From the NCBI RefSeq assembly GCF_001984215.1, contig NZ_CP019420.1, forward strand, positions 3,906,001 to 3,970,000: a stretch of 64,000 bases of DNA, given 5' to 3'. Origin of the DNA: Mycobacterium sp. MS1601 (GTDB lineage: Bacteria; Actinomycetota; Actinomycetes; Mycobacteriales; Mycobacteriaceae). Shown here in pieces: positions 14,530 to 31,617 of this stretch. The notes under the pieces are model-generated. The model ran no database searches. It was given only the letters and a program-made list of their open reading frames with translations, and was not told the origin of the DNA. The number at the start of each line of letters is the position of its first letter. Within the stretch, counting starts at the first letter, position 1. Both the position numbers and the translations under genes were made by a program.

Positions 14530-14653
14530 ATTGGTGTTCAGCGATCACCACGCGAGCAGCTTCCCGTCAATCTGCGAAGGTGGGTTCTGTTATGGCGCAG
14601 CACCATCAACAATCGAGGGCAGCGTTTGATCAATGGACGAAAGGGCAGGAGCC

Positions 14654-15415
14654 ATGTCTTCCAAGGTGTTCACCTCGGCGGCCGAGGCCGTCGCCGACAT
14701 CGGCGACGGTGCAAAGGTCGCCGTCGGCGGGTTCGGTCTGTGCGGTATCCCCGATGCACTGATCCAGGCGGTCGCCGAATCCGGTGCCTCCGGGCTGGAA
14801 GTGTTCTCCAACAACTGCGGGGTCGACGACCATGGTCTCGGTATCCTGTTGGGACTGGGACGGATTCGACGCGTCACCGCCTCCTATGTAGGGGAGAACA
14901 AGGAATTCGCCCGGCAGTATCTGGCCGGTGAACTCGAGGTGGAGCTCACCCCGCAGGGCACCCTGGCCGAACGGCTGCGCGCCGGTGGCGCCGGCATCCC
15001 GGCGTTCTTCACCCCCGCCGGTGTGTCCACCCCGGTGGCCGAGGGGGGAATCCCCTGGCGCTACGCCCCGGACGGTTCGGTGGCCGTGGCCTCCCCGCCC
15101 AAGGAGACCCGCGTGTTCGGTGACCGCAGCTACGTGCTGGAGGAGGCCATCAACGCCGACTTCGCCCTGGTGCACGCCCGGCTCGGGGACACCGCGGGAA
15201 ACCTGGTGTTCGAGAAGTCGGCGATGAACTTCAACCCGCTGGCCGCCATGGCGGGCAAGATCACCGTCGCCCAGGTGGAGGAACTCGTCGAGCCCGGCGA
15301 GATCGCCCCTGGCGCAGTACATCTGCCCGGCGTCTTCGTACAGCGCGTGGTGCACACCGGACCGCAGGACAAACGCATCGAAAAGCGCACCGTTCGCGAA
15401 GGAGCACAGTCATGA
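14654..15415 (+). CDS. scoA: 3-oxoacid CoA-transferase subunit A
   Basis: A 253-residue class I CoA-transferase alpha subunit, with [19 protein letters not shown], the [39 protein letters not shown] stretch typical of SCOT/AtoD, and a [16 protein letters not shown] core. Together with subunit B it moves CoA from succinyl-CoA (or another donor) to acetoacetate or a similar 3-oxoacid. The ATG at 14654 has AGGAG 3-7 nt upstream. The stop overlaps the subunit B start. Subunits of 3-oxoadipate CoA-transferase look alike, so the exact substrate is open; the adjacent acetoacetyl-CoA-type thiolase favours acetoacetate. Confidence 0.88.
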
Positions 15416-16068
15416 CAAGCACGCTGACCGGGTGGTCGCGCAACCAGATGGCCGCGCGCGCCGCCGCCGAGATGGTGGACGGCGAGTACGTCAATCTCGG
15501 CATCGGCCTGCCCACCCTGATCCCGGACCACCTCAGCCCCGACGTCCGTGTCACGCTGCACTCGGAGAACGGCATCCTGGGCACTGGCGCGTATCCCACC
15601 GACGACGCGGTGGACGCCGACCTGATCAACGCGGGGAAAGAAACCGTTACCGTGAATCCCGGTGCGGCGTTCTTCGATTCGGCCACCTCGTTCGGCATGA
15701 TCCGCGGCGGCCACATCAACACCGCGGTACTCGGCGCCATGCAGGTGTCGCGCCACGGCGACCTGGCCAACTGGATGATCCCCGGCAAGATGGTCAAGGG
15801 CATGGGCGGGGCCATGGACCTGGTGCACGGCGCCGACCGGGTGATCGTGCTGATGGAGCACACCGACCGTTCGGGTGCCCCCAAGATCGTCGACACCTGC
15901 TCGCTGCCGCTGACCGGCGCCAAGGTCGTCGACCGCATCATCACTAACCTGGCGGTCATCGACGTCGTGGGAGACGGCTCGCTGACGCTGGTGGAACTGG
16001 CGCCGGGGGTGTCCTACGCCGACGTCGTGGCCGCCACCGAGCCGCCGCTGACGTGGGTGCTGTCATGA
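15412..16068 (+). CDS. scoB: 3-oxoacid CoA-transferase subunit B
   Basis: A 218-residue beta subunit with the catalytic glutamate in HSENG (Glu52), [14 protein letters not shown] before it, and the conserved [27 protein letters not shown] stretch. It forms the active site with subunit A. The start overlaps the subunit A stop (ATGA) and its own stop overlaps the thiolase start (ATGA), so the three proteins are made in step from one message. Confidence 0.9.
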
Positions 16069-17234
16069 CCTCGGTGATCGTGGCCGGGGCCCGGACCCCA
16101 GTCGGCAAGCTGATGGGCTCGCTGTCGGGATTCTCCGGCGCCCAGCTCGGCGGGATCGCCATCGCCGCGGCACTGGACAAGGCCGGCATCACCGGTGATC
16201 AGGTGCAGTACGTCATCATGGGCCAGGTGCTCACAGCCGGCGCCGGTCAGCTGCCCGCCCGCCAGGCCGCCGTGGCCGCGGGCATCCCCATGTCGGTCTC
16301 GGCGCTGACGGTCAACAAGGTCTGCCTGTCTGGGCTGGACTCGATTGCCTTGGCGGATCAGCTGATTCGTGCAGGTGTGGTGGATGTGGTGGTTGCCGGG
16401 GGACAGGAGTCCATGACCCAGGCTCCGCACCTGCTGCCGAAATCCCGCGGCGGTTTCAAGTACGGCGATGTCACCCTCACCGACCACCTGGCCTACGACG
16501 GCCTGCGTGACGTGTTCACCGATGAGGCGATGGGCGCGCTCACCGAAGACGCCAATGACCTGGCCCGTCACGAGCAGGACGAGTTCGCCGCCCGCTCACA
16601 TCAACGCGCCGCAACCGCGTGGAAGGACGGCCTGTTCGACGACGAGGTGATACCCGTGTCGATTCCGCAGCGCAAGGGCGAGCCGTTGCAGTTCAGCCAA
16701 GACGAAGGCGTCCGCGGCGACACCACGGTCGAGTCGCTGGCCAGGCTGCGGCCGGCTTTCCGCAAGGACGGCACCATCACCGCGGGCAACGCCTCGACCA
16801 TCAACGACGGCGCTGCCGCCGTGGTGGTGATGAGCAAGGCCAAGGCACAGGAGCTGGGATGCGAGTGGATCGCCGAGATCGGCGCCCAGGGCATGGTGGC
16901 CGGCCCCGACTCCACGCTGCAGCTGCAACCGGCCAACGCCATCAGCGCGGCCTGCCGCACCGAAGGTATGGACCCGAAGTCGTTGGACCTCATCGAGATC
17001 AACGAGGCCTTTGCCGCGGTGGGCATCGCCTCCACCAAGGCGCTCGGCGTCGACCCAGAGAGGGTCAACGTCAACGGCGGCGCCATCTCGATCGGGCACC
17101 CGCTCGGCATGTCTGGCACGCGCATCGCGCTGCACCTGGCATTGGAGCTCAAGCGTCGTGGCGGCGGTGTGGGTGCTGCGTCCCTGTGCGGTGGCACCGG
17201 CCAGGGCTCCGCCCTGATCCTGCGCGTTCCCTAG
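16065..17234 (+). CDS. acetyl-CoA C-acetyltransferase (thiolase)
   Basis: A 389-residue thiolase with the nucleophilic Cys87 (NKVCLSG), His345 in [11 protein letters not shown] and Cys375 in SLCGGTGQG. Sequence and length are close to M. tuberculosis FadA4 as I recall it, and unlike the ~400-residue PcaF type. It would cleave acetoacetyl-CoA made by the adjacent CoA-transferase to two acetyl-CoA, completing ketone-body or acetoacetate use; the reverse (condensation) is also possible. It is the last gene of the operon and is followed within 2 nt by the 49-bp palindrome. Confidence 0.9.
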
Positions 17235-22594: not shown

Positions 22595-22812
22595 GTTCTC
22601 CCCAGCAGTGTTGTCGTGATTCGTCAGGCCCGACAACACTGTGGAGCCAGGCTTCGCGGCCGGCTCATCGAGACAGCGGCGGGCGTAGCGGGGAGATCGT
22701 TGCACTCTCTGGCTGAACGGAACCTTAAAGAACTGAGGCGGACTCGCCCCGCATCCGTCGCGCGGGAACGTGGCGGTGGTCGGGTTGACCGCCGCCACGC
22801 TCGCCGCCGTAC

Positions 22813-24162
22813 CTAGCGTGTGAGGGGTGCAGGATCGGTATTGGTGCTGTCGGAACCGTGTCGAACCATGTGGTCGCGTGCGAACACCTGCAGGAAAGCC
22901 CCCACCAGTGCGCATCCGGCAAGAACCAAGAAGCACACCACGTAGCCGCCGGCCTCGGTCCAGCCGCCGCTGAAGCCGATCAGCCGGCCCATCAGCAGCG
23001 GGGCGATACCGCCGCCGATGAACATCGCCGTGGTGAGTATCCCGTTGGCAGTGGACACCGCACCCACGGGCGCGGCATCGGATGCGGCGGCGTAGTAGAT
23101 CGGCCAGACCGCGTTGGCGACCAGACCGAAGACCAGCTGGATGGCGACCACCAGCAGCGAGGTGGTGGCGAAGTAGAAACACGCCACGCTGATCGCCATC
23201 CAGACGCCGCAGATGATGATCGTGGTGCGGCGGCCGATCACATCGGACAGTGACGGCCACAGCACCTGGCCGATGACTCCGGTGAGGGCGAAAACCACAC
23301 TGAGAGCTGCTGATTCGGCCAGCGAGAGCCCGACGATGTTGTACAGGTACGCGGGCAGGACGACGTTGATGCCCATGTAGACGATCTGGGTCAACAGCAC
23401 CGTCGTCGCGGTCAGTGAGATGGTGCGGTTGCGGAAGCAGGCACCGATGGGCCCGGGGCCGCCGTCCTGGCGGACGTGTACCGGATCACGGTCCGGCGGT
23501 GTCAGCCCCTGCGCGCTGATGGATTCGTACAGGGTGTCGATTTTGTCCTTGGTGGAGTAGCGGCCCCAGAACAGCATCAGCGGCACGGCCACCAGGAAGG
23601 TCAGGAACAAGGTGTAGGACCAGTTCTCTGCACCGAACGCGGCGATCACCACCGCCGCGGCCAACCCGCTCAACAGCGATCCCACGGGGTAACCGGTGTG
23701 GTGCACGCCGAGGGCGAAGCCACGACGTTCTTTGGGCCACCATTCCGCGGTGTTGCTGATGCCGACGGGCTCTCCCCATCCGGCACCCAGGTTGACGCCG
23801 ATACGCAAGGCGATGAATGCGATCAGATTGGAGCTGACAGCCTTGAAGCCGGACACCAATGACAGCGCGGTGTATCCGATCACCAGTGGAACCTGGAACC
23901 GGGCCCGTTTCCAGCCGCCGCCGTACTTGTCGCTGAGCGTCGAACCGGGGATGGCCAGGATCGCCAGCGAGACCATGATGAGCGACACGATCGCCCCCCA
24001 CTGGTCGGGGCTGAGGTCGAAGGCCTCGGAAATGGTGGGTCCGAGGCGGAGGATGATCTCGCGGTCGTAGGCGTTGAGCACCCAGATGAGCCAGCAGACA
24101 AAGAGTGAAACCCAGGAGTATTTGTGCGTTTTGCGCAGCGAACCGCGACGTGAGGTGGCCAT
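22813..24162 (-). CDS. MFS transporter, anion:cation symporter-like
   Basis: A 449-residue major facilitator with about 12 hydrophobic segments. The start of helix 1 reads VSLFVCWLIWVLNAYDREIIL. The loop 2-3 motif is GSTLSDKYGGGWKRARFQ, and GWGEPVGISNTAEWWPKERRGFALGVHHTGYPVGSLL is typical of carboxylate/sugar-acid transporters such as the ACS and MHS groups. It lies downstream of the SMP-30 gene in the same direction, and the pair is preceded by the shared LacI-type operator. It probably imports the acidic substrate of the cluster. The start has GAGGAA 8 nt upstream. Confidence 0.85.
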   Translation of the reverse strand: MATSRRGSLRKTHKYSWVSLFVCWLIWVLNAYDREIILRLGPTISEAFDLSPDQWGAIVSLIMVSLAILAIPGSTLSDKYGGGWKRARFQVPLVIGYTALSLVSGFKAVSSNLIAFIALRIGVNLGAGWGEPVGISNTAEWWPKERRGFALGVHHTGYPVGSLLSGLAAAVVIAAFGAENWSYTLFLTFLVAVPLMLFWGRYSTKDKIDTLYESISAQGLTPPDRDPVHVRQDGGPGPIGACFRNRTISLTATTVLLTQIVYMGINVVLPAYLYNIVGLSLAESAALSVVFALTGVIGQVLWPSLSDVIGRRTTIIICGVWMAISVACFYFATTSLLVVAIQLVFGLVANAVWPIYYAAASDAAPVGAVSTANGILTTAMFIGGGIAPLLMGRLIGFSGGWTEAGGYVVCFLVLAGCALVGAFLQVFARDHMVRHGSDSTNTDPAPLTR

Positions 24163-24225
24163 GAACGTGTTCCTCGGTGGTGGAAGGGGTAACTCGGAAG
24201 TGGTGTGGAAAGTCCGGTGTTAGCG

Positions 24226-25155
24226 TCAGGCGCCAAAGCGTGGTTCGGCGATGCCCTGCACACCCAGGCCGTGCACCGCGAACAGCGATCCCCGCAGTGG
24301 TCCGTCGTCGGGGAACCGCGGCAGCGGCGGCTTGGCCATCGAGGTGGCGAACAGGATGTCGAGATCTGGGCCACCGAAATTGAGACTCGTGACCTTACGA
24401 ACCGGAAAGTCGATGATGCGGTCGACGCTGCCGTCAGGTGCGTATCGAATGATCTTGCCGCCGTAGACAAGTGCTTGCCAGAGGTAACCCTGCGCGTCCA
24501 CCGTGGCGCCGTCGGCCGCGCCCCCGCTGCTGGTGTCGACCTGGGCGAAGGTGCGGCGATTCGATACGCCGCCGGTGCTCAGGTCGTAGTCGTAGGCCCA
24601 GATTTCGCCCGCCCACGTATCGGCGAAGTAGAGCACCGACCCGTCGGGGCTGAAACACGGACCGTTCGAACAGACGATGCCCTCGTCCAGCACGGTCAAC
24701 GTGCCGTCGGGGTCGAAGCTGTACAGCTTGCCTCGGGCGGCTTCTTCCAGGGTGTCCATCGACCCGAAGACGAAACGTCCTGCCCTGTCGACCTTTCCGT
24801 CATTGAGGCGATTGTTCGGCAGGTCGGCTTCGACCGCGGCCAGTTGCCTCAGATCGCCGGTCTCGAAGGTGAGCCGGTACAGCCCGTCCTGAAGCGCCAG
24901 GATGGCGCCGTCACCGTCGCGGGTGAGCGCCATCGACCCGATTTTTTGTCCGACTTCCCAGGCGCGAACGTTCGAACCCGCAGCCGTGGACCGAAACACC
25001 CGTCCGTCCATGCTGTCGACCCAGTAGAGCAGTTGCTGCCCCTGGTCCCACACCGGGCTCTCACCCAGGGTGGTCTTGACGTCGATGACCACCTCGATGC
25101 GGACGTCCCGGGCTGTGAGCGGGGAGGTGACAGTGGGGGCGCTGCCTTGAGGCAC
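24226..25155 (-). CDS. SMP-30/gluconolactonase-like calcium-dependent lactonase
   Basis: A 309-residue six-bladed propeller hydrolase of the SMP-30/LRE family. Recognisable elements are TLGESPVWDQGQQLLYWVDS (metal-binding glutamate at the first blade), LPNNRLNDGKVDRAGRFVFGSM, CSNGPCFSPDGSVLYFADTW and VRKVTSLNFGGPDLDILFATS. Members open sugar or other lactones. The GTG start has GAAGGAGAG upstream. It is followed by the MFS transporter, 63 nt away, in the same direction, and its upstream region holds the LacI-type motif at 25246-25262. Confidence 0.88.
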   Translation of the reverse strand: MPQGSAPTVTSPLTARDVRIEVVIDVKTTLGESPVWDQGQQLLYWVDSMDGRVFRSTAAGSNVRAWEVGQKIGSMALTRDGDGAILALQDGLYRLTFETGDLRQLAAVEADLPNNRLNDGKVDRAGRFVFGSMDTLEEAARGKLYSFDPDGTLTVLDEGIVCSNGPCFSPDGSVLYFADTWAGEIWAYDYDLSTGGVSNRRTFAQVDTSSGGAADGATVDAQGYLWQALVYGGKIIRYAPDGSVDRIIDFPVRKVTSLNFGGPDLDILFATSMAKPPLPRFPDDGPLRGSLFAVHGLGVQGIAEPRFGA

Positions 25156-25245
25156 GAGGACTCTCCTTCTCGGGGCGGATCCAGGTCAGAGCCGGTGACG
25201 GCCCTGCAGAATCTCGATGGTCGAACGGTAGAAGCGACGGGATAT

Positions 25246-25262
25246 GTTAAGCAACGTTAAGT
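25246..25262. promoter_or_regulatory. LacI-type operator, copy 1
   Basis: GTTAAGCAACGTTAAGT, identical over 17 bp to the site at 29462-29478 beside the lacI-family gene. It contains two GTTAAG units at 10-bp spacing and TTAA arms around a GCAACG core. It lies about 90 bp upstream of the SMP-30 start, near a candidate -10 (TACCGT) on the minus strand. The rest of the 230-nt gap to the acyl-CoA hydrolase gene shows nothing else. Confidence 0.7.
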
Positions 25263-25385
25263 TGTGATCTGGGACATCATGTGGCTCCGATGTGGGATCA
25301 GCCACGATTGCGGCCACTGTGGCACTGAGGTGTTGAGCTGGCCGCACCCCTCATCTGACGAAAAAGCGCAGGGCGACATCGATTT

Positions 25386-26453
25386 TCACCGAGACATCGC
25401 CGATGTGTGTTCGCCGACTTGCGCCGCGTCGGCGAAGTAGGCGTGCACGCTGGCCGCGGACACGGCTGAGACCTCTGCCGGTGCCCACCGCGGAGCGCGG
25501 TCCTTGTCGATGACCTGCGCCCGGATACCTTCCCGCAGGTCATGAGACCGTAGGGCGGCGGTGGAGGTGCAGTACTCCATGGCCAGAGCGTCCTCGCGGT
25601 TGTCGAGTCGTTCCGCGCGCCGGAGTGCCTCCAGCGTCACCGCCACGGCGGTGGGGGAATGACCGGCTATCAAGCGGGCAGCGGCGTGGGCTGCTGCGTT
25701 GTCGTGTGCCTCGAGCGCGGAGATGATCTGCACGATCGTCTCACCCGCGTAACACTCATCGATCCAGGGGTGTAGCGCCAGCTCACTGCCGGGTGGTTCC
25801 TCGGTGTACGCCGCCAGTGCCGCGTCCACTCCGTCGGAGACGATCGCCGCGGTGAAGTCGGCCAGGGCGTCGTGGGGCACGTAATGGTCGGCGAATCCGA
25901 GTGTGATGGCGTCCGCGCCGGTGAACGACGCTCCGGTCAGGCCGACATGGAGCCCGGTGCGCCCAGGCGCCCGCGACAGCAGATAGGTGCCGCCCACATC
26001 CGGTATCAACCCGATGCGGACCTCCGGCATCGCCACCCGGGTGCGGTCGGTGACCACCCTGGTGTTCGCGTGGGCGGAGAGCCCGACGCCGCCACCCATC
26101 ACAATGCCGTCCATGAGAGCCACGTACGGCTTGGGATACCGGCTGATGTAGGCATTGAGCTGGTACTCGTCGTGCCAGAACCGGCGGGCGGCGCAGCCGT
26201 CACCGAGGGCGCTGTGATAGATCGCGACCACATCGCCCCCGGCGCACAATCCGCGATCGCCGGCACCCGAGAGCACCACGGCGGTGATCGCCGGATCGTG
26301 CGCCCAGGCGGTGAGTGTCCGGTGAAGAACGGACACCATGGCGTGGTTCAGGGCGTTGATGACCGTCGGCCGGTTCAGCGTCAGCAGCCCGACGGTGCCG
26401 TCCACCCGGGTCTGCACCTGGCCAGTCGGATCGACCGGCGGTGGATTGGCCAT
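25386..26453 (-). CDS. 3-hydroxyisobutyryl-CoA hydrolase-like (crotonase fold) enzyme
   Basis: A 355-residue crotonase-superfamily protein of the HIBYL-CoA hydrolase branch. That branch is recognised by LCAGGDVVAIY, then HDEYQLNAYISRYPKPYVALMDGIVMGGGVGLS, the RVAMPEVRIGLIPDVGGTY motif with catalytic Glu/Asp, and the long C-terminal domain (WIDECYAGETIVQIISALE). The branch hydrolyses small acyl-CoA esters. It starts 3 nt after the BKACE stop, so it is co-transcribed. In this operon it would act as the thioesterase for the CoA ester released by BKACE. Valine degradation is the alternative role. Confidence 0.85.
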   Translation of the reverse strand: MANPPPVDPTGQVQTRVDGTVGLLTLNRPTVINALNHAMVSVLHRTLTAWAHDPAITAVVLSGAGDRGLCAGGDVVAIYHSALGDGCAARRFWHDEYQLNAYISRYPKPYVALMDGIVMGGGVGLSAHANTRVVTDRTRVAMPEVRIGLIPDVGGTYLLSRAPGRTGLHVGLTGASFTGADAITLGFADHYVPHDALADFTAAIVSDGVDAALAAYTEEPPGSELALHPWIDECYAGETIVQIISALEAHDNAAAHAAARLIAGHSPTAVAVTLEALRRAERLDNREDALAMEYCTSTAALRSHDLREGIRAQVIDKDRAPRWAPAEVSAVSAASVHAYFADAAQVGEHTSAMSR

Positions 26454-26456
26454 GCG

Positions 26457-27389
26457 CTAGAAGCCCACCTTGTCCGGGCCTTTGAGATCGAGCATCTCGC
26501 GGGCCTCGTCCGGTGTCGCAACCTGGAGGTTGAGTGCTTCCAGGATGGTCCGGATGCGGGTGACCTGTTCAGCGTTGGACGCGGCCAACTGACCGGGCCC
26601 GATCCAGAGTGAGTCCTCCAGGCCCACCCGGACATGGGAGCCCATCGCCGCACCGATGGTGGCCAAGGGCATCTGGTTGCGCCCGGCGCCCAGGATCGAC
26701 CACTGGTAGTGCTCGCCGAAGAGTCGGTCTGCTGTGCGACGCATGTGCATCAGATCCTCGGGGTGCGCGCCGATACCACCGAGCAGACCGAACACCGATT
26801 GGACGAACAGCGGGCCGCGCGCCAGCCCCCGTTCGTGGAAATGCGCGAGGTTGTTCAGGTGCGAGATGTCGTAGCACTCGAACTCGAAGCGGGTCCCGTT
26901 GCCGTTGCCGATCTCCAGGATGCGCTGGATGTCGGCAAAGGTGTTCTTGAACACCAGGTCTCGTGACTTTTCCAGGCCTTCGCGTTCCCAGTCGTGGCCG
27001 AAGGTGGAGAACCGGTCCAGCATGGGGTACAGGCCGAAGTTCATCGAGCCCATGTTCAGCGATGCCAGCTCGGGGGAGAACGTCGCCACCGGCTGCATCC
27101 GCTCCTCGACCGTCATGTGCGGAGATCCGCCGGTGGTGATGTTGACGATCGCGTTGGTGTTGGCTTTCAGCTTGGCCAGGATCGGTTCGAAATCCTTCGG
27201 ATCTTGAGAAGGCCGCCCGTCGATCGGGCTGCGAGCGTGCATGTGCACGATGGCAGCCCCCGCCTGCGCTGCTCCGATCGCGGCGTCGGCGATCTCGGCT
27301 GCGGTGACCGGCAAATGCGGCGACATACTCGGGGTGTGGATCGCACCGGTGACGGCGCTGGTGATGATGACTTTCCGCTGTGCGGCCAT
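26457..27389 (-). CDS. BKACE-family beta-keto acid cleavage enzyme
   Basis: A 310-residue protein of the BKACE family (formerly DUF849), TIM-barrel enzymes that use acetyl-CoA to split a beta-keto acid into acetoacetate and a new CoA ester. Visible are IITSAVTGAIHTPSMSPHLPVT at the N terminus, the metal-binding AAIVHMHARSP, IVNITTGGSPHMTVEER and GLEDSLWIGPGQLAASNAEQV near the C terminus. GAGGAGA precedes the ATG. It sits between an SDR gene and an acyl-CoA hydrolase gene, all on one message. The same three-reaction logic works in carnitine breakdown (dehydrogenase, cleavage, thioesterase). The actual beta-keto acid is unknown. Confidence 0.9.
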   Translation of the reverse strand: MAAQRKVIITSAVTGAIHTPSMSPHLPVTAAEIADAAIGAAQAGAAIVHMHARSPIDGRPSQDPKDFEPILAKLKANTNAIVNITTGGSPHMTVEERMQPVATFSPELASLNMGSMNFGLYPMLDRFSTFGHDWEREGLEKSRDLVFKNTFADIQRILEIGNGNGTRFEFECYDISHLNNLAHFHERGLARGPLFVQSVFGLLGGIGAHPEDLMHMRRTADRLFGEHYQWSILGAGRNQMPLATIGAAMGSHVRVGLEDSLWIGPGQLAASNAEQVTRIRTILEALNLQVATPDEAREMLDLKGPDKVGF

Positions 27390-27409
27390 GATGTGTCTCC
27401 TCGGATGGA

Positions 27410-28198
27410 TCAGAACAGTTTGTTGGTGTCACCGTCGACGGCCATTGCCTGGCCGTGGACATTGCGGGCCAACGGGCCGGCGAGGAACACCGCCATGTTG
27501 GCGATGTCGCGGGGGTCGATCAGACGTCCTAGTGATGATTGGTTGCGATACAGGGCCGCCACCTCGTCGACCGGCTGGCCCAACATGTCGGCCTTGGCCT
27601 GGATCACGGCCTCGATGCGTGGCCCGTCGACAGCACCAGGACAGATGGCATTGACGCGGATGCCTTCGGCGCCGAGTTCGATGGCCAGCGACTTGGTGAA
27701 TCCGATGACGGCCCACTTCGATGCCGAATAGGGTGTGCGGCCGGACATCCCGAGGCGGCCGGCCGCAGACGACATGTTGATCACGCAAGCCTCGGACGAC
27801 TCCCGCAGCAGTGGCAGAGCGTGTTTGACACAGTAGAACTGGCCGTGGATGTTGACGTCGAAGGTGGCCTTCCATGCCTGGCTGTCCAGAGACTCCACCG
27901 GCCCTGTGGGTCCCGCGATGCCGGCGTTGTTCACCAAAATGTCAAGACCACCCAGGGTTTCGCGCACCGACTGCATCAGTGCCTTCGCCTCGTCTTCCCG
28001 GGAGGCGTCGCTGACGGCCGCGGTGAAACCGGCGGCTTTGGCGGCGTCCACCGAATCAGGATTGACATCGGTCACGAACACATCGGCACCTACCGCCTTC
28101 ATGGCGGTGGCGATGGCCAGACCGATACCGGCAGCACCGGCGGTGACCAGGACGCGCCGCCCGGTCAGACCGACGGTCGGGACTTCAGTGGTGGTCAT
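27410..28198 (-). CDS. SDR-family NAD(P)-dependent dehydrogenase
   Basis: A 262-residue short-chain dehydrogenase. The cofactor site is TAGAAGIGLAIATAM (GxxxGIG type) followed by DVNPDS, where the aspartate after the second strand suggests NAD. NNAGIAG, the catalytic serine in NMSSAAGRLGMSG and YSASK are all present. The ATG at 28198 is preceded by AGGAG. It ends 20 nt before the BKACE gene. It probably oxidises a beta-hydroxy acid to the beta-keto acid that BKACE then cleaves. Confidence 0.88.
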   Translation of the reverse strand: MTTTEVPTVGLTGRRVLVTAGAAGIGLAIATAMKAVGADVFVTDVNPDSVDAAKAAGFTAAVSDASREDEAKALMQSVRETLGGLDILVNNAGIAGPTGPVESLDSQAWKATFDVNIHGQFYCVKHALPLLRESSEACVINMSSAAGRLGMSGRTPYSASKWAVIGFTKSLAIELGAEGIRVNAICPGAVDGPRIEAVIQAKADMLGQPVDEVAALYRNQSSLGRLIDPRDIANMAVFLAGPLARNVHGQAMAVDGDTNKLF

Positions 28199-28304
28199 GC
28201 GGCGGCTCCTGGGTGTAGTTGGGTTGTTGTGCCGAGCGTTTTGTCGCATGCCTCATAAGCGCACCGCCGAGCCGTGCGCTGATGACGTGCGACGCGAGTT
28301 GGTG

Positions 28305-29384
28305 CTAGTCGGGCGGTGTCACCGTCTGCGGGTCGGGGGTGCAGCCACAGGTGCGGCCGATGTGGAGACGGTGTTCGCAGATCACGTGGTGGTAGGTGGA
28401 GCGGGGGTGGGTGATCTGGTCCAGAAGTAGCTCCCAGGAACGTTCCGCCATGGCGTTGATCGGCTGGATGGCGGTGGTCAACGAAACCATCGCCGATCGC
28501 GAATGCGGTAGGCCGTCGCCTCCGGCCACCGCCAGGTCTTCGGGAATGCGCAAGCCCTTGGACAACGCGTATTCCATGACACCGATGGCGATCTCGTCTG
28601 ATCCGCACATCACCACATCAGGCGGATTCGGTGACTCGAGCAGTGCCTTGGCCGCGGCACGGCCGCCGGCGTTGTCGAGCCGAGTACTGATCTTGCGGTT
28701 GCCGTCGATGACGACGCCGGCCTCGGCCGCCGTCCGCACGAATGCGATTTCGCGTTGCAGCGACGCCGTGGAGAAGCGCGGACCGATCACCGTTGCCACT
28801 TCGCGGTATCCATGCGAGAGAACATGATTCATGAGCAGGCTGGCAGAGGCGTCGAAGTCGATGCCGACAAAATCACCGTGCAGCTGGTCGGCGCTGCGGG
28901 ACAGGCAGACGAAGGGGATTCGTTTCTGTCGCAGCAGTCGTAACGCGCGCAGGTCCTCGCGCATCAGCGCCGCGATGATGACTCCGTCGACATTACGGGC
29001 GGCCAAAGTGGCGGTCACCTGGGCCAAGGTGTCCGGGTCGTCGTCGGTGGTCGCGACGAAGACGTCGAACCCCTCGTCACGGGTGATCGAAATGATGCGC
29101 TGTGCCCATCCGGTGTACATCGAGTTGACGATGTTGGGCAGGATGAGCCCGATGACGCGGGTGAGAAGCGGATCGCGGCGGGTACCCAGCGGCGGGCGGT
29201 AGCCGAGTTCGGAAGCCGCATTGATGATGCGTTTGCGGGTCTCGTCGGAGACCCCGGCCCGCCCGTTCATCACGTAACTGACGGTGGCCTTGGAGACGCC
29301 GCAGGCGCGGGCGACGGCGGCCGCCGAGACCTTGGCTCCCACCGTCGCAGGGGCGGACGTGCCGGTATCGGAGGTGGTGCGCAT
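28305..29384 (-). CDS. LacI-family transcriptional regulator
   Basis: A 359-residue LacI-type repressor. The helix-turn-helix and hinge read SAAAVARACGVSKATVSYVMNGRAGVSDETRKRI, and the sugar-binding-protein-like effector domain follows (IGLILPNIVNSMYTGWAQRI, VCLSRSADQLHGDFVGIDF). The start is the ATG at 29384 with GGAGG 6-10 nt upstream; a longer frame to 29459 is rejected. It is the first gene of the lacI-SDR-BKACE-hydrolase run, and the 17-bp motif at 29462-29478 lies about 80 bp upstream of it. It likely represses itself, this operon and the SMP-30/MFS operon. The C-terminal tail contains an unusual CGCTPDPQ stretch. Confidence 0.9.
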   Translation of the reverse strand: MRTTSDTGTSAPATVGAKVSAAAVARACGVSKATVSYVMNGRAGVSDETRKRIINAASELGYRPPLGTRRDPLLTRVIGLILPNIVNSMYTGWAQRIISITRDEGFDVFVATTDDDPDTLAQVTATLAARNVDGVIIAALMREDLRALRLLRQKRIPFVCLSRSADQLHGDFVGIDFDASASLLMNHVLSHGYREVATVIGPRFSTASLQREIAFVRTAAEAGVVIDGNRKISTRLDNAGGRAAAKALLESPNPPDVVMCGSDEIAIGVMEYALSKGLRIPEDLAVAGGDGLPHSRSAMVSLTTAIQPINAMAERSWELLLDQITHPRSTYHHVICEHRLHIGRTCGCTPDPQTVTPPD

Positions 29385-29461
29385 CGGCCCTCCTTCCGTG
29401 CTCTGCGACGATCTCTTCGCGTACGGCGCGATGTGAGCCCTATTACAGCCGCCTATCAACC

Positions 29462-29478
29462 GTTAAGCAACGTTAAGT
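29462..29478. promoter_or_regulatory. LacI-type operator, copy 2
   Basis: GTTAAGCAACGTTAAGT, the second identical copy of the motif at 25246-25262, in the 114-nt gap between the Ldh2-FAH frame and the lacI gene. Two exact 17-bp copies, each in front of an operon of the same catabolic region, indicate a shared repressor, most simply the LacI protein encoded next to it. Confidence 0.75.
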
Positions 29479-29498
29479 CAGGCCCGTGGTCAGCGTCG

Positions 29499-30914
29499 TC
29501 AGACCACCGGGTTCGTCAACGTCCCCAGCCCGTCGATGCTGACCTCCATGACATCGCCGGGTACCAGGAACTTCGGGGGAGTGAAGCCCAGACCCACACC
29601 CACGGGGGTGCCGGTGGCGATCACGTCGCCGGGTTCGAGCAGCACGGCAGTGGAGATCGCGGAGATCAGCCGGGGGATGTCGAAGATCAGTTCCTTGAGC
29701 GTGGTGTCCTGGCGCAGCTCACCGTTGATGCGGGTCTGCAGGCGCAGGGCCGTCACGTCCGCGATCTCGTCGGCCGTCACGAGTGCCGGCCCCATCGGAG
29801 CGTAGGTGTGGGCGCTCTTGCCGATGAAGAACTGCACATGCTTGCGCTGCAGATCACGGACCGTGACATCGTTGAGGATCGTGTAGCCGTACACGTGGTC
29901 CCAGGCGTCGGCCGCATTGATCTGGAACCCACCGGGACCGATCACCACGGCGAGTTCGCCCTCGTAGTCGCTGGTGTTGGTGCTGTCGGCACTCACGTTC
30001 ACCGGCGCGCCCGGATCCGTCAGTGACGACAACGCTTTGGTGAAGATCACCGGCTCGTCGGGCACTATCTGCTTCTGCGAGGCGTCGAAACCGCTGCCGG
30101 CGAACTCTTTTGCATGCTCGTAGTAGTTCTTGCCGACGCACATGATGTTGTTGCGTGGGCGGATGGGAGCCAGCAGCGTCACCTCGGCCAGGGCGATGCG
30201 CGGACCATCGAGGGTGGCGGCCGCGGAGTCGCCGGGCAACCGCACCGGACCGCCGTTTCTGGTAGCGGAATGCCGCAGCGCATCGAGGTGGCCGGTGAGT
30301 GCGGCCAGCACGTCGTCCTGGTCGCGGAACAGGTCGGCCCGCAACACCAGGATCGACTGCCCGGTGTTGGTAGGCGTCTTCAGGTCATTCAGGTGGTCGA
30401 CGACGTCGGCGCCGAATGCCGCGCCGTTGAGCACGCCGGCCAGCAGCCCGAACGCGATGGTGAGCCCGGCACCCTTGTAGCCGCCCATGGGTTGCAGGAA
30501 ACCTTCGTGAGCTCGAGCCGGGTCGGTGATGGGGTTGGTGCCCAGAATGGGATTGGCACCGCCCCACGGTGGCATGCCGTTGGCGTTGGCCACCGCCATG
30601 TACACCCCGATCAGACCCGCGTCGGCCGCCATCTCCGCGTACAGACCCACCTGGCGCAGGCCGTTGTCTCCGTCGATCGGTGCGGACACCGGTGTCTCGT
30701 GTCGAGTGGTGATCACGGGGGTGATGTTGACGCCGCCGGCCTCGATGCGTGCCACGTACGGTGCCAGCCGGATCAGGCCGTGACCGGTGCGGCCCCGCAG
30801 ATCGGCCTCCACCAGGCGACGGGCTGTGATGTCTGCGTGCTCGGCTGATACTCCGCAAGCTTGGAGGACGCTGATCGCGAACGAGGTCAACGTCTCACTG
30901 CTGCGGCGGATCAT
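29499..30914 (-). CDS. mosaic frame: shortened Ldh2-type dehydrogenase fused to FAH hydrolase
   Basis: A 471-residue continuous frame. Residues 1-230 match the malate/L-lactate dehydrogenase Ldh2 family (EADLRGRTGHGLIRLAPYV, DGDNGLRQVG, PPWGGANPILGTNPI, GGYKGAGLTIAFGLLAGVLNGAAFG). Members normally have ~330-360 residues. Here the segments after RQVG and after GTNPI appear to be missing, removing the usual NHFG region and ~45 nucleotide-binding residues. Residues ~241-471 match fumarylacetoacetate hydrolase-family enzymes (NIMCVGKNYYEHAKEF, SDYEGELAVVIG, YTILNDVTVRDLQRKHVQFF, GDVIATGTPVGVG) but lack the usual first ~60 residues. The FAH core may still work; the dehydrogenase part probably does not. 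The ATG overlaps the stop of the upstream pseudogene. Confidence 0.7.
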   Translation of the reverse strand: MIRRSSETLTSFAISVLQACGVSAEHADITARRLVEADLRGRTGHGLIRLAPYVARIEAGGVNITPVITTRHETPVSAPIDGDNGLRQVGLYAEMAADAGLIGVYMAVANANGMPPWGGANPILGTNPITDPARAHEGFLQPMGGYKGAGLTIAFGLLAGVLNGAAFGADVVDHLNDLKTPTNTGQSILVLRADLFRDQDDVLAALTGHLDALRHSATRNGGPVRLPGDSAAATLDGPRIALAEVTLLAPIRPRNNIMCVGKNYYEHAKEFAGSGFDASQKQIVPDEPVIFTKALSSLTDPGAPVNVSADSTNTSDYEGELAVVIGPGGFQINAADAWDHVYGYTILNDVTVRDLQRKHVQFFIGKSAHTYAPMGPALVTADEIADVTALRLQTRINGELRQDTTLKELIFDIPRLISAISTAVLLEPGDVIATGTPVGVGLGFTPPKFLVPGDVMEVSIDGLGTLTNPVV

Positions 30915-31617
30915 CCTCGGCCCGTGTCGATTCCGAAGAGCTGGGCTGCGTTGCCGCCGAGGACGCGGTCCCGGTCAGCGCGGTCGAGATCGACTCCGGC
31001 CAGGAACCCCACCGGATCGACGGGACCCATGTCGAAGGGATAGTCGGTGCCCATCAGCACGTGGTCGGCTCCCAGCGTCGACACCAGGTGCGCGACCATG
31101 TGTGGGTCAAAGACGTTGGTGTCGACATAGATCCGCTTGAGTACCTGGCTCGGCGGCACGTCGAGCTGGTGTCTCAGCTCGGGGCGCACCTTCCAGGCGT
31201 GGTCGGTGCGCGCAACGTAAAACGGCAGATAGCCTCCGCCGTGCACCACCAGGAGTCGCAAATCCGGATGCCGGTTCCACACCCCGCCGAGGATCATCCG
31301 CGTCACCGCCAGCGTGGAGGCCAGCGGCATGCACATCACGTTCACCAGGTAGTAGTCACTGAAGCGCTGGCCGTGGGTGAATCACTGCGGGTGGAGGATC
31401 ACCGTCATCCCCAGTTCCACCACCGTCTCCCACACCGGGTCGAAGCGGGGGTCGTCGAGGTCTTTGCCCAGCACGTCGGCACTGATTTCCACGCCCCGTG
31501 GGCGGCACCGAGAGGATCTGTATGTCGACGCCCTGGGCATCCAGGTCCGCCAATCGCTGTTCGGGATCCTCGAACTGGGCGGTGTTGCGCGCACTGGCTC
31601 CGTTAATGTCTCGGGCT
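30911..31617 (-). pseudogene. ACMSD-like amidohydrolase, disrupted
   Basis: The remains of an amidohydrolase-2/aminocarboxymuconate-semialdehyde-decarboxylase-like protein. The C-terminal part is well kept (VVHGGGYLPFYVARTDHAWKVRPE, YVDTNVFDPHMVAHLV, GADHVLMGTDYPFDMG, with histidine and aspartate metal ligands). Three lesions are visible. A TGA at 31382-31384 replaces the Trp codon expected in HPQWFTHGQRFSDYYLVNV. A frame change at about 31491-31505 joins ILSVPPTGRG to VEISADVLGKD and appears to skip about 55 residues. The N terminus with the first HxH metal motif is absent, with a stop upstream at 31618-31620. It cannot make a normal enzyme. Confidence 0.8.

What the first reader, a model, noticed from the sequence alone, without database searches (positions are those of the whole stretch)
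25386..28198. SDR - BKACE - acyl-CoA hydrolase: a three-step beta-hydroxy acid cleavage module
The three genes are spaced 20 and 3 nt apart. Oxidation of a beta-hydroxy acid, acetyl-CoA-dependent cleavage to acetoacetate plus a CoA ester, and ester hydrolysis is the chemistry of carnitine breakdown to betaine, here built from a different dehydrogenase and a crotonase-type hydrolase. The acetoacetate formed could enter the CoA-transferase/thiolase operon at 14.6-17.2 kb. With a lactonase and an acid transporter under the same operator, the substrate may be a lactone of a hydroxy acid. I do not know of a described pathway of this form.
Basis: inference. Interest (0 to 1): 0.7.

Follow-up and report, generated by a model that had tools for sequence, protein, structure and literature searches.

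The report
Deoxyribonate-breakdown operon with candidate missing hydrolase
This gene set most likely breaks down 2-deoxyribonate, an oxidised form of the DNA sugar, by a pathway first described in 2019, and it carries a dedicated hydrolase gene that is a good candidate for an enzyme of that pathway that had not been identified.

Summary
In detail: SDR, BKACE and an HIBCH-type acyl-CoA hydrolase lie head to tail with gaps of 20 and 3 nt, beside a LacI regulator, an SMP-30 lactonase and an MFS carrier. The only two exact copies of a 17-bp operator in the 6.8-Mb genome precede LacI-SDR-BKACE-hydrolase and lactonase-MFS. The proposed chemistry is well supported; the belief that no such pathway is described is not. 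It matches oxidative 2-deoxy-D-ribonate catabolism (Price et al. 2019). Operons with orthologous LacI and the same operator add a glycerate kinase (five Arthrobacter loci, one genome of the same genus) and, in A. pascens, also ScoAB and thiolase: the two branches that pathway needs. Proteobacterial relatives carry the operator GTGATCAC that Price reported (29 of 80 loci). Against: 0 of 80 related loci have the hydrolase. Substrate, hydrolase specificity and LacI ligand are inferred, not shown.

The parts
29462..29478 (.). operator copy 1 (GTTAAGCAACGTTAAGT), 78 nt before the LacI start
   Evidence: exact match, one of two in the genome; same site with 0-2 mismatches in all 10 of 80 loci that have a LacI match of at least 200 bits
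28305..29384 (-). LacI-family regulator
   Evidence: Pfam PF00356 and PF13377; 80% identical in L105, 43-72% in ten of 80 loci
27410..28198 (-). SDR dehydrogenase, proposed 2-deoxyribonate 3-dehydrogenase
   Evidence: Pfam adh_short_C2; YSASK at 157, NMSSAAG at 141, Asp in VTDV at 42-45 suggesting NAD (meaning recalled); orthologue in 60 of 80 BKACE loci
26457..27389 (-). BKACE, proposed 2-deoxy-3-ketoribonate cleavage enzyme
   Evidence: PF05853 361.9 bits; NF053538 542.2 bits, cut-off 430; HxH at 49/51 and RVGLED at 254-259 (zinc-ligand role recalled)
25386..26453 (-). HIBCH-type acyl-CoA hydrolase, proposed glyceryl-CoA hydrolase
   Evidence: NF004127 430.6 bits, cut-off 274; catalytic Glu144 and Asp152 aligned with human HIBCH 3BPT (role recalled)
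25246..25262 (.). operator copy 2, 91 nt before the lactonase start
   Evidence: exact match; copy with 1 mismatch before the SMP-30 gene of L105
24226..25155 (-). SMP-30/gluconolactonase-type lactonase, proposed deoxyribonolactonase
   Evidence: PF08450 268.2 bits; 78% in L105; matches of 46-67% in 9 of 80 loci
22813..24162 (-). MFS carrier, proposed deoxyribonate uptake
   Evidence: PF07690 146.1 bits; 77% in L105
14633..17234 (+). ScoA, ScoB, acetyl-CoA C-acetyltransferase: proposed acetoacetate-to-acetyl-CoA branch, not under the operator
   Evidence: TIGR02429, TIGR02428, TIGR01930 above cut-off; 66, 69 and 59% to the genes inside the A. pascens operon L010

Best explanation
A LacI-controlled regulon for oxidative catabolism of 2-deoxy-D-ribonate. 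Uptake by the MFS carrier (inferred). The SMP-30 lactonase opens the lactone (inferred). The SDR oxidises C3 with NAD+ to 2-deoxy-3-keto-D-ribonate (inferred; the P. simiae enzyme makes a ketodeoxyribonate in vitro, position undetermined, in Price et al.). BKACE moves the C1-C2 acetyl unit onto acetyl-CoA, giving acetoacetate and D-glyceryl-CoA (inferred). The HIBCH-type hydrolase splits glyceryl-CoA to D-glycerate and CoA (inferred; the new assignment). A glycerate kinase encoded elsewhere leads to glycolysis, and ScoAB-thiolase returns acetoacetate to acetyl-CoA (inferred). LacI represses both units through the 17-bp operator until the acid or an intermediate binds (inferred). Shown here: gene order, family membership, the operator and its conservation, and the genes that share operons with the orthologues.
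For: P. simiae operon of regulator, SDR, BKACE, lactonase and two MFS genes, all important on deoxyribose or deoxyribonate (PMC6365646). Orthologous actinobacterial operons with the same LacI and operator carry a glycerate kinase in 5 of 10 loci and, in A. pascens, ScoAB and thiolase too. In L105 a glycerate kinase stands divergent to LacI with operators between them. 29 of 80 related loci have the published GTGATCAC within 150 nt upstream of the SDR or a GntR gene, about 0.35 sites expected. Two glycerate kinases in the own genome. BKACE15 of P. [quoted passage not shown] GapMind states that a glyceryl-CoA hydrolase is unknown. Hydrolase linked to BKACE on two more contigs, inferred from equal contig lengths.
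Against: The SDR and BKACE were not compared directly with the P. simiae proteins (not held). No substrate was tested. The hydrolase is in 0 of 80 related loci and in none of L105, L124, L125, L126, L129, L130, so most related operons do without it. Glycerate kinase is not in the window's cluster, and 5 of the 10 LacI-type loci lack one nearby. The NCBI equivalog name points to 3,5-dioxohexanoate. The 29 GTGATCAC loci are related, hence not independent. Even in Price et al. the cleavage step was not shown directly.
Confidence: 0.8

Rival explanations
1. The deoxyribonate pathway is right, but the HIBCH-type gene is an ordinary 3-hydroxyisobutyryl-CoA hydrolase that landed in the operon, and glyceryl-CoA is handled by unspecific thioesterases or by ScoAB acting as a CoA-transferase.
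For: The protein is well inside the HIBCH subfamily and 61% identical to M. thermoresistibile HIBCH. Related operons lack it. Price et al. suspected redundancy at this step and a CoA-transferase in Klebsiella. A. pascens has ScoAB in the operon.
Against: The own genome keeps another HIBCH (59%) beside an enoyl-CoA hydratase-like gene.
Confidence: 0.3
2. Same chemistry on another 3-hydroxy acid, such as a different 2-deoxyaldonate or a 3,5-dioxo or 3-oxo-5-hydroxy acid.
For: NF053538 name; broad BKACE15 substrate list. In G771/G813 the operator controls BKACE-MFS opposite a LarA-type operon with no SDR nearby, so the regulator may serve other entry routes.
Against: All 8 other BKACEs tested, including two from GTGATCAC clusters, also pass NF053538, so it does not discriminate. 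Glycerate kinase in orthologous operons points to glyceryl-CoA, hence to a 2-deoxypentonate.
Confidence: 0.15
3. A carnitine-like or amino-acid-like cleavage module (dehydrocarnitine or 3-keto-5-aminohexanoate).
For: Same order of reactions as carnitine to betaine (recalled); public records call the protein '3-keto-5-aminohexanoate cleavage protein'.
Against: The Glu of the TGAE motif in Kce 2y7d (recalled as the amine-binding residue) is Ile17 here; NF052387 236.9 bits against a cut-off of 382; an SDR instead of a carnitine dehydrogenase of the 3HCDH family.
Confidence: 0.03

Closest known systems
Oxidative 2-deoxy-D-ribonate pathway of Pseudomonas simiae WCS417, PS417_07240-07265 (Price et al. 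2019, PMC6365646)
   Same: SDR, BKACE, lactonase and MFS carrier in one regulon; need for glycerate kinase, acetoacetate activation and thiolase
   Different: LacI with a 17-bp operator instead of GntR with GTGATCAC; one MFS gene instead of two; a hydrolase gene after BKACE, where P. simiae has no identified gene for that step
Arthrobacter pascens operon (L010): LacI-MFS-SDR-BKACE-ScoA-ScoB-thiolase-glycerate kinase
   Same: orthologous LacI (66%), SDR (71%), BKACE (85%) and an exact operator copy
   Different: a different MFS, ScoAB, thiolase and glycerate kinase inside the operon, no hydrolase and no SMP-30 lactonase found in the locus
3-hydroxyisobutyryl-CoA hydrolase (HIBCH; 4HDT, 3BPT)
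   Same: family, length, catalytic Glu and Asp
   Different: operon context; groups with P0001-P0004 (support 0.999) and not with the other genus copies; substrate inferred to be glyceryl-CoA
BKACE15 of Paracoccus denitrificans (8RIO, 8RIP, 9HNF; PMC11961710)
   Same: same BKACE subgroup (441 bits over residues 3-310), zinc enzyme
   Different: physiological role of BKACE15 unknown; context said to be aromatic degradation

Membership tests
Oxidative 2-deoxyribonate pathway (Price et al. 2019) | SDR gene clustered with a BKACE gene | tested here: met
   20-nt gap; orthologous pair in 60 of 80 loci
Oxidative 2-deoxyribonate pathway (Price et al. 2019) | lactonase and MFS carrier in the same regulon | tested here: met
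Oxidative 2-deoxyribonate pathway (Price et al. 2019) | glycerate kinase available | tested here: met
   two in the own genome, outside the cluster; inside or opposite the orthologous operon in L004, L006, L007, L009, L010 and L105
Oxidative 2-deoxyribonate pathway (Price et al. 2019) | acetoacetate activation and thiolase available | tested here: met
   14633-17234; inside the A. pascens operon
Oxidative 2-deoxyribonate pathway (Price et al. 2019) | close homology of SDR and BKACE to PS417_07245 and PS417_07250 | tested here: inconclusive
   sequences not held; bridge only through loci with GntR, GTGATCAC and the same gene order, e.g. L075 with SDR 49% and BKACE 71%
Oxidative 2-deoxyribonate pathway (Price et al. 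2019) | oxidises and cleaves deoxyribonate; supports growth on it | not testable with these tools
   needs assays
P. simiae/B. graminis GntR-regulated cluster type | GntR regulator with GTGATCAC upstream | tested here: not met
   LacI with GTTAAGCAACGTTAAGT instead; the regulator also varies within Price et al. (AraC in P. bryophila)
BKACE (PF05853) | profile match and zinc-ligand motif | tested here: met
   361.9 bits; HxH at 49/51 and RVGLED at 254
3,5-dioxohexanoate BKACE (NF053538 equivalog) | score above the curated cut-off | tested here: met
   542.2 against 430, but all 8 other BKACEs tested pass too, so it says little about substrate
Kce, 3-keto-5-aminohexanoate cleavage enzyme (NF052387) | score above cut-off and amine-binding Glu | tested here: not met
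   236.9 against 382; Ile17 at the Glu position
3-hydroxyisobutyryl-CoA hydrolase family (NF004127, PF16113) | profile match and catalytic Glu/Asp | tested here: met
   430.6 against 274; Glu144, Asp152
Glyceryl-CoA hydrolase | hydrolyses D-glyceryl-CoA | not testable with these tools
   context only

The most novel reading that the evidence does not exclude
The HIBCH-type gene encodes the unidentified glyceryl-CoA hydrolase of deoxyribonate catabolism, recruited in mycobacteria from the valine-catabolic hydrolase, while A. pascens meets the same need with a CoA-transferase that saves the thioester; a LacI/GTTAAGCAACGTTAAGT regulon controls the pathway across several actinobacterial genera.
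Probability: 0.55. Interest if true: 0.6.

Novelty: new variant of a known kind. Interest (0 to 1): 0.5.

Why it matters
GapMind lists deoxyribonate oxidation as a pathway with one missing reaction, 'an unknown glyceryl-CoA hydrolase' (PMC9007349, passage). A concrete gene, 61% identical to a hydrolase of solved structure (4HDT), makes that gap testable. The pathway was described in Proteobacteria; here it is placed in Actinobacteria with a regulator and operator that can be used for annotation. The result also warns that the NCBI name '3,5-dioxohexanoate:acetyl-CoA acetone transferase' is carried by BKACEs whose context points to ketodeoxyribonate.

Tried and rejected
Kce-type and carnitine-type substrates rejected. 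The NCBI name '3,5-dioxohexanoate' set aside, as all 8 other BKACEs tested pass that model. Residues separating the cluster HIBCH from other copies: besides end-gap columns, eight positions (31, 34, 66, 137, 139, 149, 171, 307) are fixed in the 5 cluster-clade sequences and differ from at least 23 of 25 others, but P0008 shares only four of them (34, 137, 149, 171), so no specificity argument is made. Promoter/terminator scan of 22600-29700: no sigma70-like site and one terminator-like site (22750-22735, after MFS), below the shuffle mean; uninformative. A further mycobacterial hydrolase of the cluster type was sought in 396 genus genomes: 20 match at E<=1e-140, the 19 besides the own one at only 65-67% identity; 5 candidates scored per genome. 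SDR searches: 2 of 397 order genomes at 1e-75 with 6 candidates scored per genome and 0 of 37 genomes of the genus of G771 at 1e-80; weak as negatives. Plasmid collection: HIBCH matches all below 60%; SDR at 1e-60 in one Caballeronia record. Four annotated plasmid regions were viewed; one had no annotated features, one (Sagittula, L103) has SDR, 3HCDH-type dehydrogenase and BKACE together, two have no SDR beside BKACE. Papers: searches listed none that names a glyceryl-CoA hydrolase gene or a LacI regulator of this pathway, as far as titles, abstract starts and the papers opened show; most subscription papers are not held. The original BKACE survey (Bastard et al. 2014) is recalled, not read.
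Full report
What is there. The minus strand carries, in order of transcription, LacI (29384-28305), SDR (28198-27410), BKACE (27389-26457) and an HIBCH-type acyl-CoA hydrolase (26453-25386), then an SMP-30 lactonase (25155-24226) and an MFS carrier (24162-22813). Gaps are 106, 20 and 3 nt in the first unit and 63 nt in the second. The 17-mer GTTAAGCAACGTTAAGT stands exactly twice in the 6.83-Mb genome, 78 nt before LacI and 91 nt before the lactonase. The observation, with 'under the same operator', is confirmed.

What pathway it is. Price et al. 2019 (PMC6365646; outline, passages and sections 8, 9, 11, 12 and Discussion seen) describe in Pseudomonas simiae a GntR gene followed by SDR, BKACE, lactonase and two MFS genes. 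Their route: deoxyribonate to a ketodeoxyribonate (shown in vitro, position not determined), cleavage with acetyl-CoA to acetoacetate and D-glyceryl-CoA (not shown directly), then glycerate, glycerate kinase and thiolase (genetic evidence). They found no gene for glyceryl-CoA to glycerate and suspected redundancy. [quoted passage not shown] The window has the same enzymes plus a hydrolase of a fitting family directly after BKACE.

Support from relatives in Proteobacteria. 60 of 80 hold an SDR orthologue (>=40% identity, >=180 bits), 57 within 1500 nt and 41 within 200 nt of BKACE; 20 do not, some of them on short contigs. 29 of 80 have GTGATCAC, the palindrome Price reported, within 150 nt upstream of the SDR or of a GntR gene; about 0.35 sites would be expected from the density elsewhere in these loci, though the loci are related and not independent. 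L075 (Caballeronia humi) has GntR, SDR (49% to the window's), BKACE (71%) and a metallo-beta-lactamase-fold protein in that order. The P. simiae proteins themselves were not available for comparison.

The actinobacterial version. Ten of the 80 loci have a LacI match of at least 200 bits (L004-L011, L013, L016; 43-72%). All ten have the window's operator with 0-2 mismatches, nine of them upstream of LacI, and L016 upstream of an MFS-like gene; none of the other 70 has it within 2 mismatches. Five of the ten (L004, L006, L007, L009, L010) have a glycerate kinase downstream of BKACE; L005, L008, L011, L013 and L016 showed none (the L004 kinase passes TIGR00045). L010 (Arthrobacter pascens) runs LacI, MFS, SDR, BKACE, ScoA, ScoB, thiolase, glycerate kinase, so both expected products are served by one operon; ScoAB was found in 2 of 88 loci examined and thiolase in 1. 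G177, of the same genus as the window's genome, has LacI (80%), SDR (76%), BKACE (88%), SMP-30 (78%) and MFS (77%), a glycerate kinase divergent from LacI with two operators between them, a third operator at the SMP-30 gene, and no hydrolase. The A. pascens ScoA finds the window's ScoA as its best match in the own genome (68%; next 53% over part of the length). No operator lies at the window's ScoAB-thiolase, so its co-induction remains open.

The hydrolase. It passes NF004127 (430.6 bits, cut-off 274) and PF16113 and aligns with 4HDT and human HIBCH 3BPT, with the Glu and Asp recalled as catalytic kept as E144 and D152. The genome has a second HIBCH (59%) beside an enoyl-CoA hydratase-like gene and a third, remote one (39%). 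In a FastTree of 32 sequences the cluster copy groups with P0001-P0004 (0.999) and then P0008 (0.607); the own 59% copy, paired with the long-branched third copy, is the next neighbour at low support (0.663), so the tree shows a distinct clade but not where it came from. Linkage elsewhere is inferred from equal contig lengths: BKACE P0246, SDR P0142 and HIBCH P0008 all list 42,760 bases (Mycobacterium sp. MAG); BKACE P0242 and HIBCH P0003 both list 6,259 bases. Against a general role: none of the 80 loci has an HIBCH match better than 32%, nor has any of L105, L124, L125, L126, L129, L130. HIBCH-type enzymes also act on 3-hydroxypropionyl-CoA (recalled); glyceryl-CoA differs from it by one hydroxyl, which is the chemical reason for the assignment.

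BKACE specificity. The Glu of TGAE in Kce 2y7d is Ile17 here, read through the own-genome paralogue L002 as a bridge, and the Kce model is missed (236.9 of 382 bits). The 3,5-dioxohexanoate model is passed (542.2 of 430) but so do all 8 other BKACEs tested, among them L075 and L012 from GTGATCAC clusters. BKACE15 of P. denitrificans takes 5-hydroxy-beta-ketohexanoate, 3,5-dioxohexanoate, beta-ketohexanoate and beta-ketopentanoate (PMC11961710, passages), compatible with 4,5-dihydroxy-3-oxopentanoate.

Distribution. BKACE at E<=1e-60 occurs in 4 of 198 genus genomes, at 1e-120 in 4 of 401 family genomes, at 1e-110 in 12 of 397 order genomes: a patchy accessory trait, probably acquired horizontally (inference). 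In G771 and G813 (another genus of the family; G813's contig length equals that of a Rhodococcus ruber record, hence Rhodococcus is inferred) two operators stand before BKACE-MFS; in L129 (G771) a LarA-type operon lies opposite and no SDR was found in the 20-kb stretch. The regulator may thus serve other entry routes.

Verdict. The module is real and its chemistry was read well, but it is a variant of a described pathway. New are a testable candidate for that pathway's unidentified hydrolase and the LacI regulon. No assay was possible; confidence is 0.8 in the pathway and about 0.55 in the hydrolase assignment.

Noticed in passing
window 29499-30914 (-): One frame joins Ldh_2 pieces (three stretches) to a complete FAA_hydrolase domain; none of 1267 plasmid records with a match covers 80% of it. 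It looks like a fusion after internal loss in the dehydrogenase part.
   Followed up: partly
window 30911-31345 (-): 144-aa amidohydrolase matching only positions 153-289 of 289 of the profile: probably a truncated gene upstream of the fusion.
   Followed up: no
L129 3565-8583 (genome G771): Opposite the operator-bearing BKACE-MFS pair: LarA (PF09861/PF21113), a 277-aa unmatched ORF, an AIRC-domain (LarB-like) protein, a nickel-insertion (LarC-like) protein and a 3-hydroxyacyl-CoA dehydrogenase, suggesting a nickel-pincer racemase step linked to BKACE in this genus.
   Followed up: partly
L012, L083, L103 and others: A 3HCDH-type dehydrogenase similar to that of L103 is found in 37 of 88 loci, often just before BKACE; it may oxidise the 3-hydroxy acid of the other configuration. 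Price et al. suspected deoxyribonyl-CoA for its P. bryophila homologue.
   Followed up: no
NCBIfam NF053538: The equivalog '3,5-dioxohexanoate:acetyl-CoA acetone transferase' is passed by the window's BKACE and all 8 others tested, including deoxyribonate-type clusters; the transferred name is probably misleading for these.
   Followed up: yes
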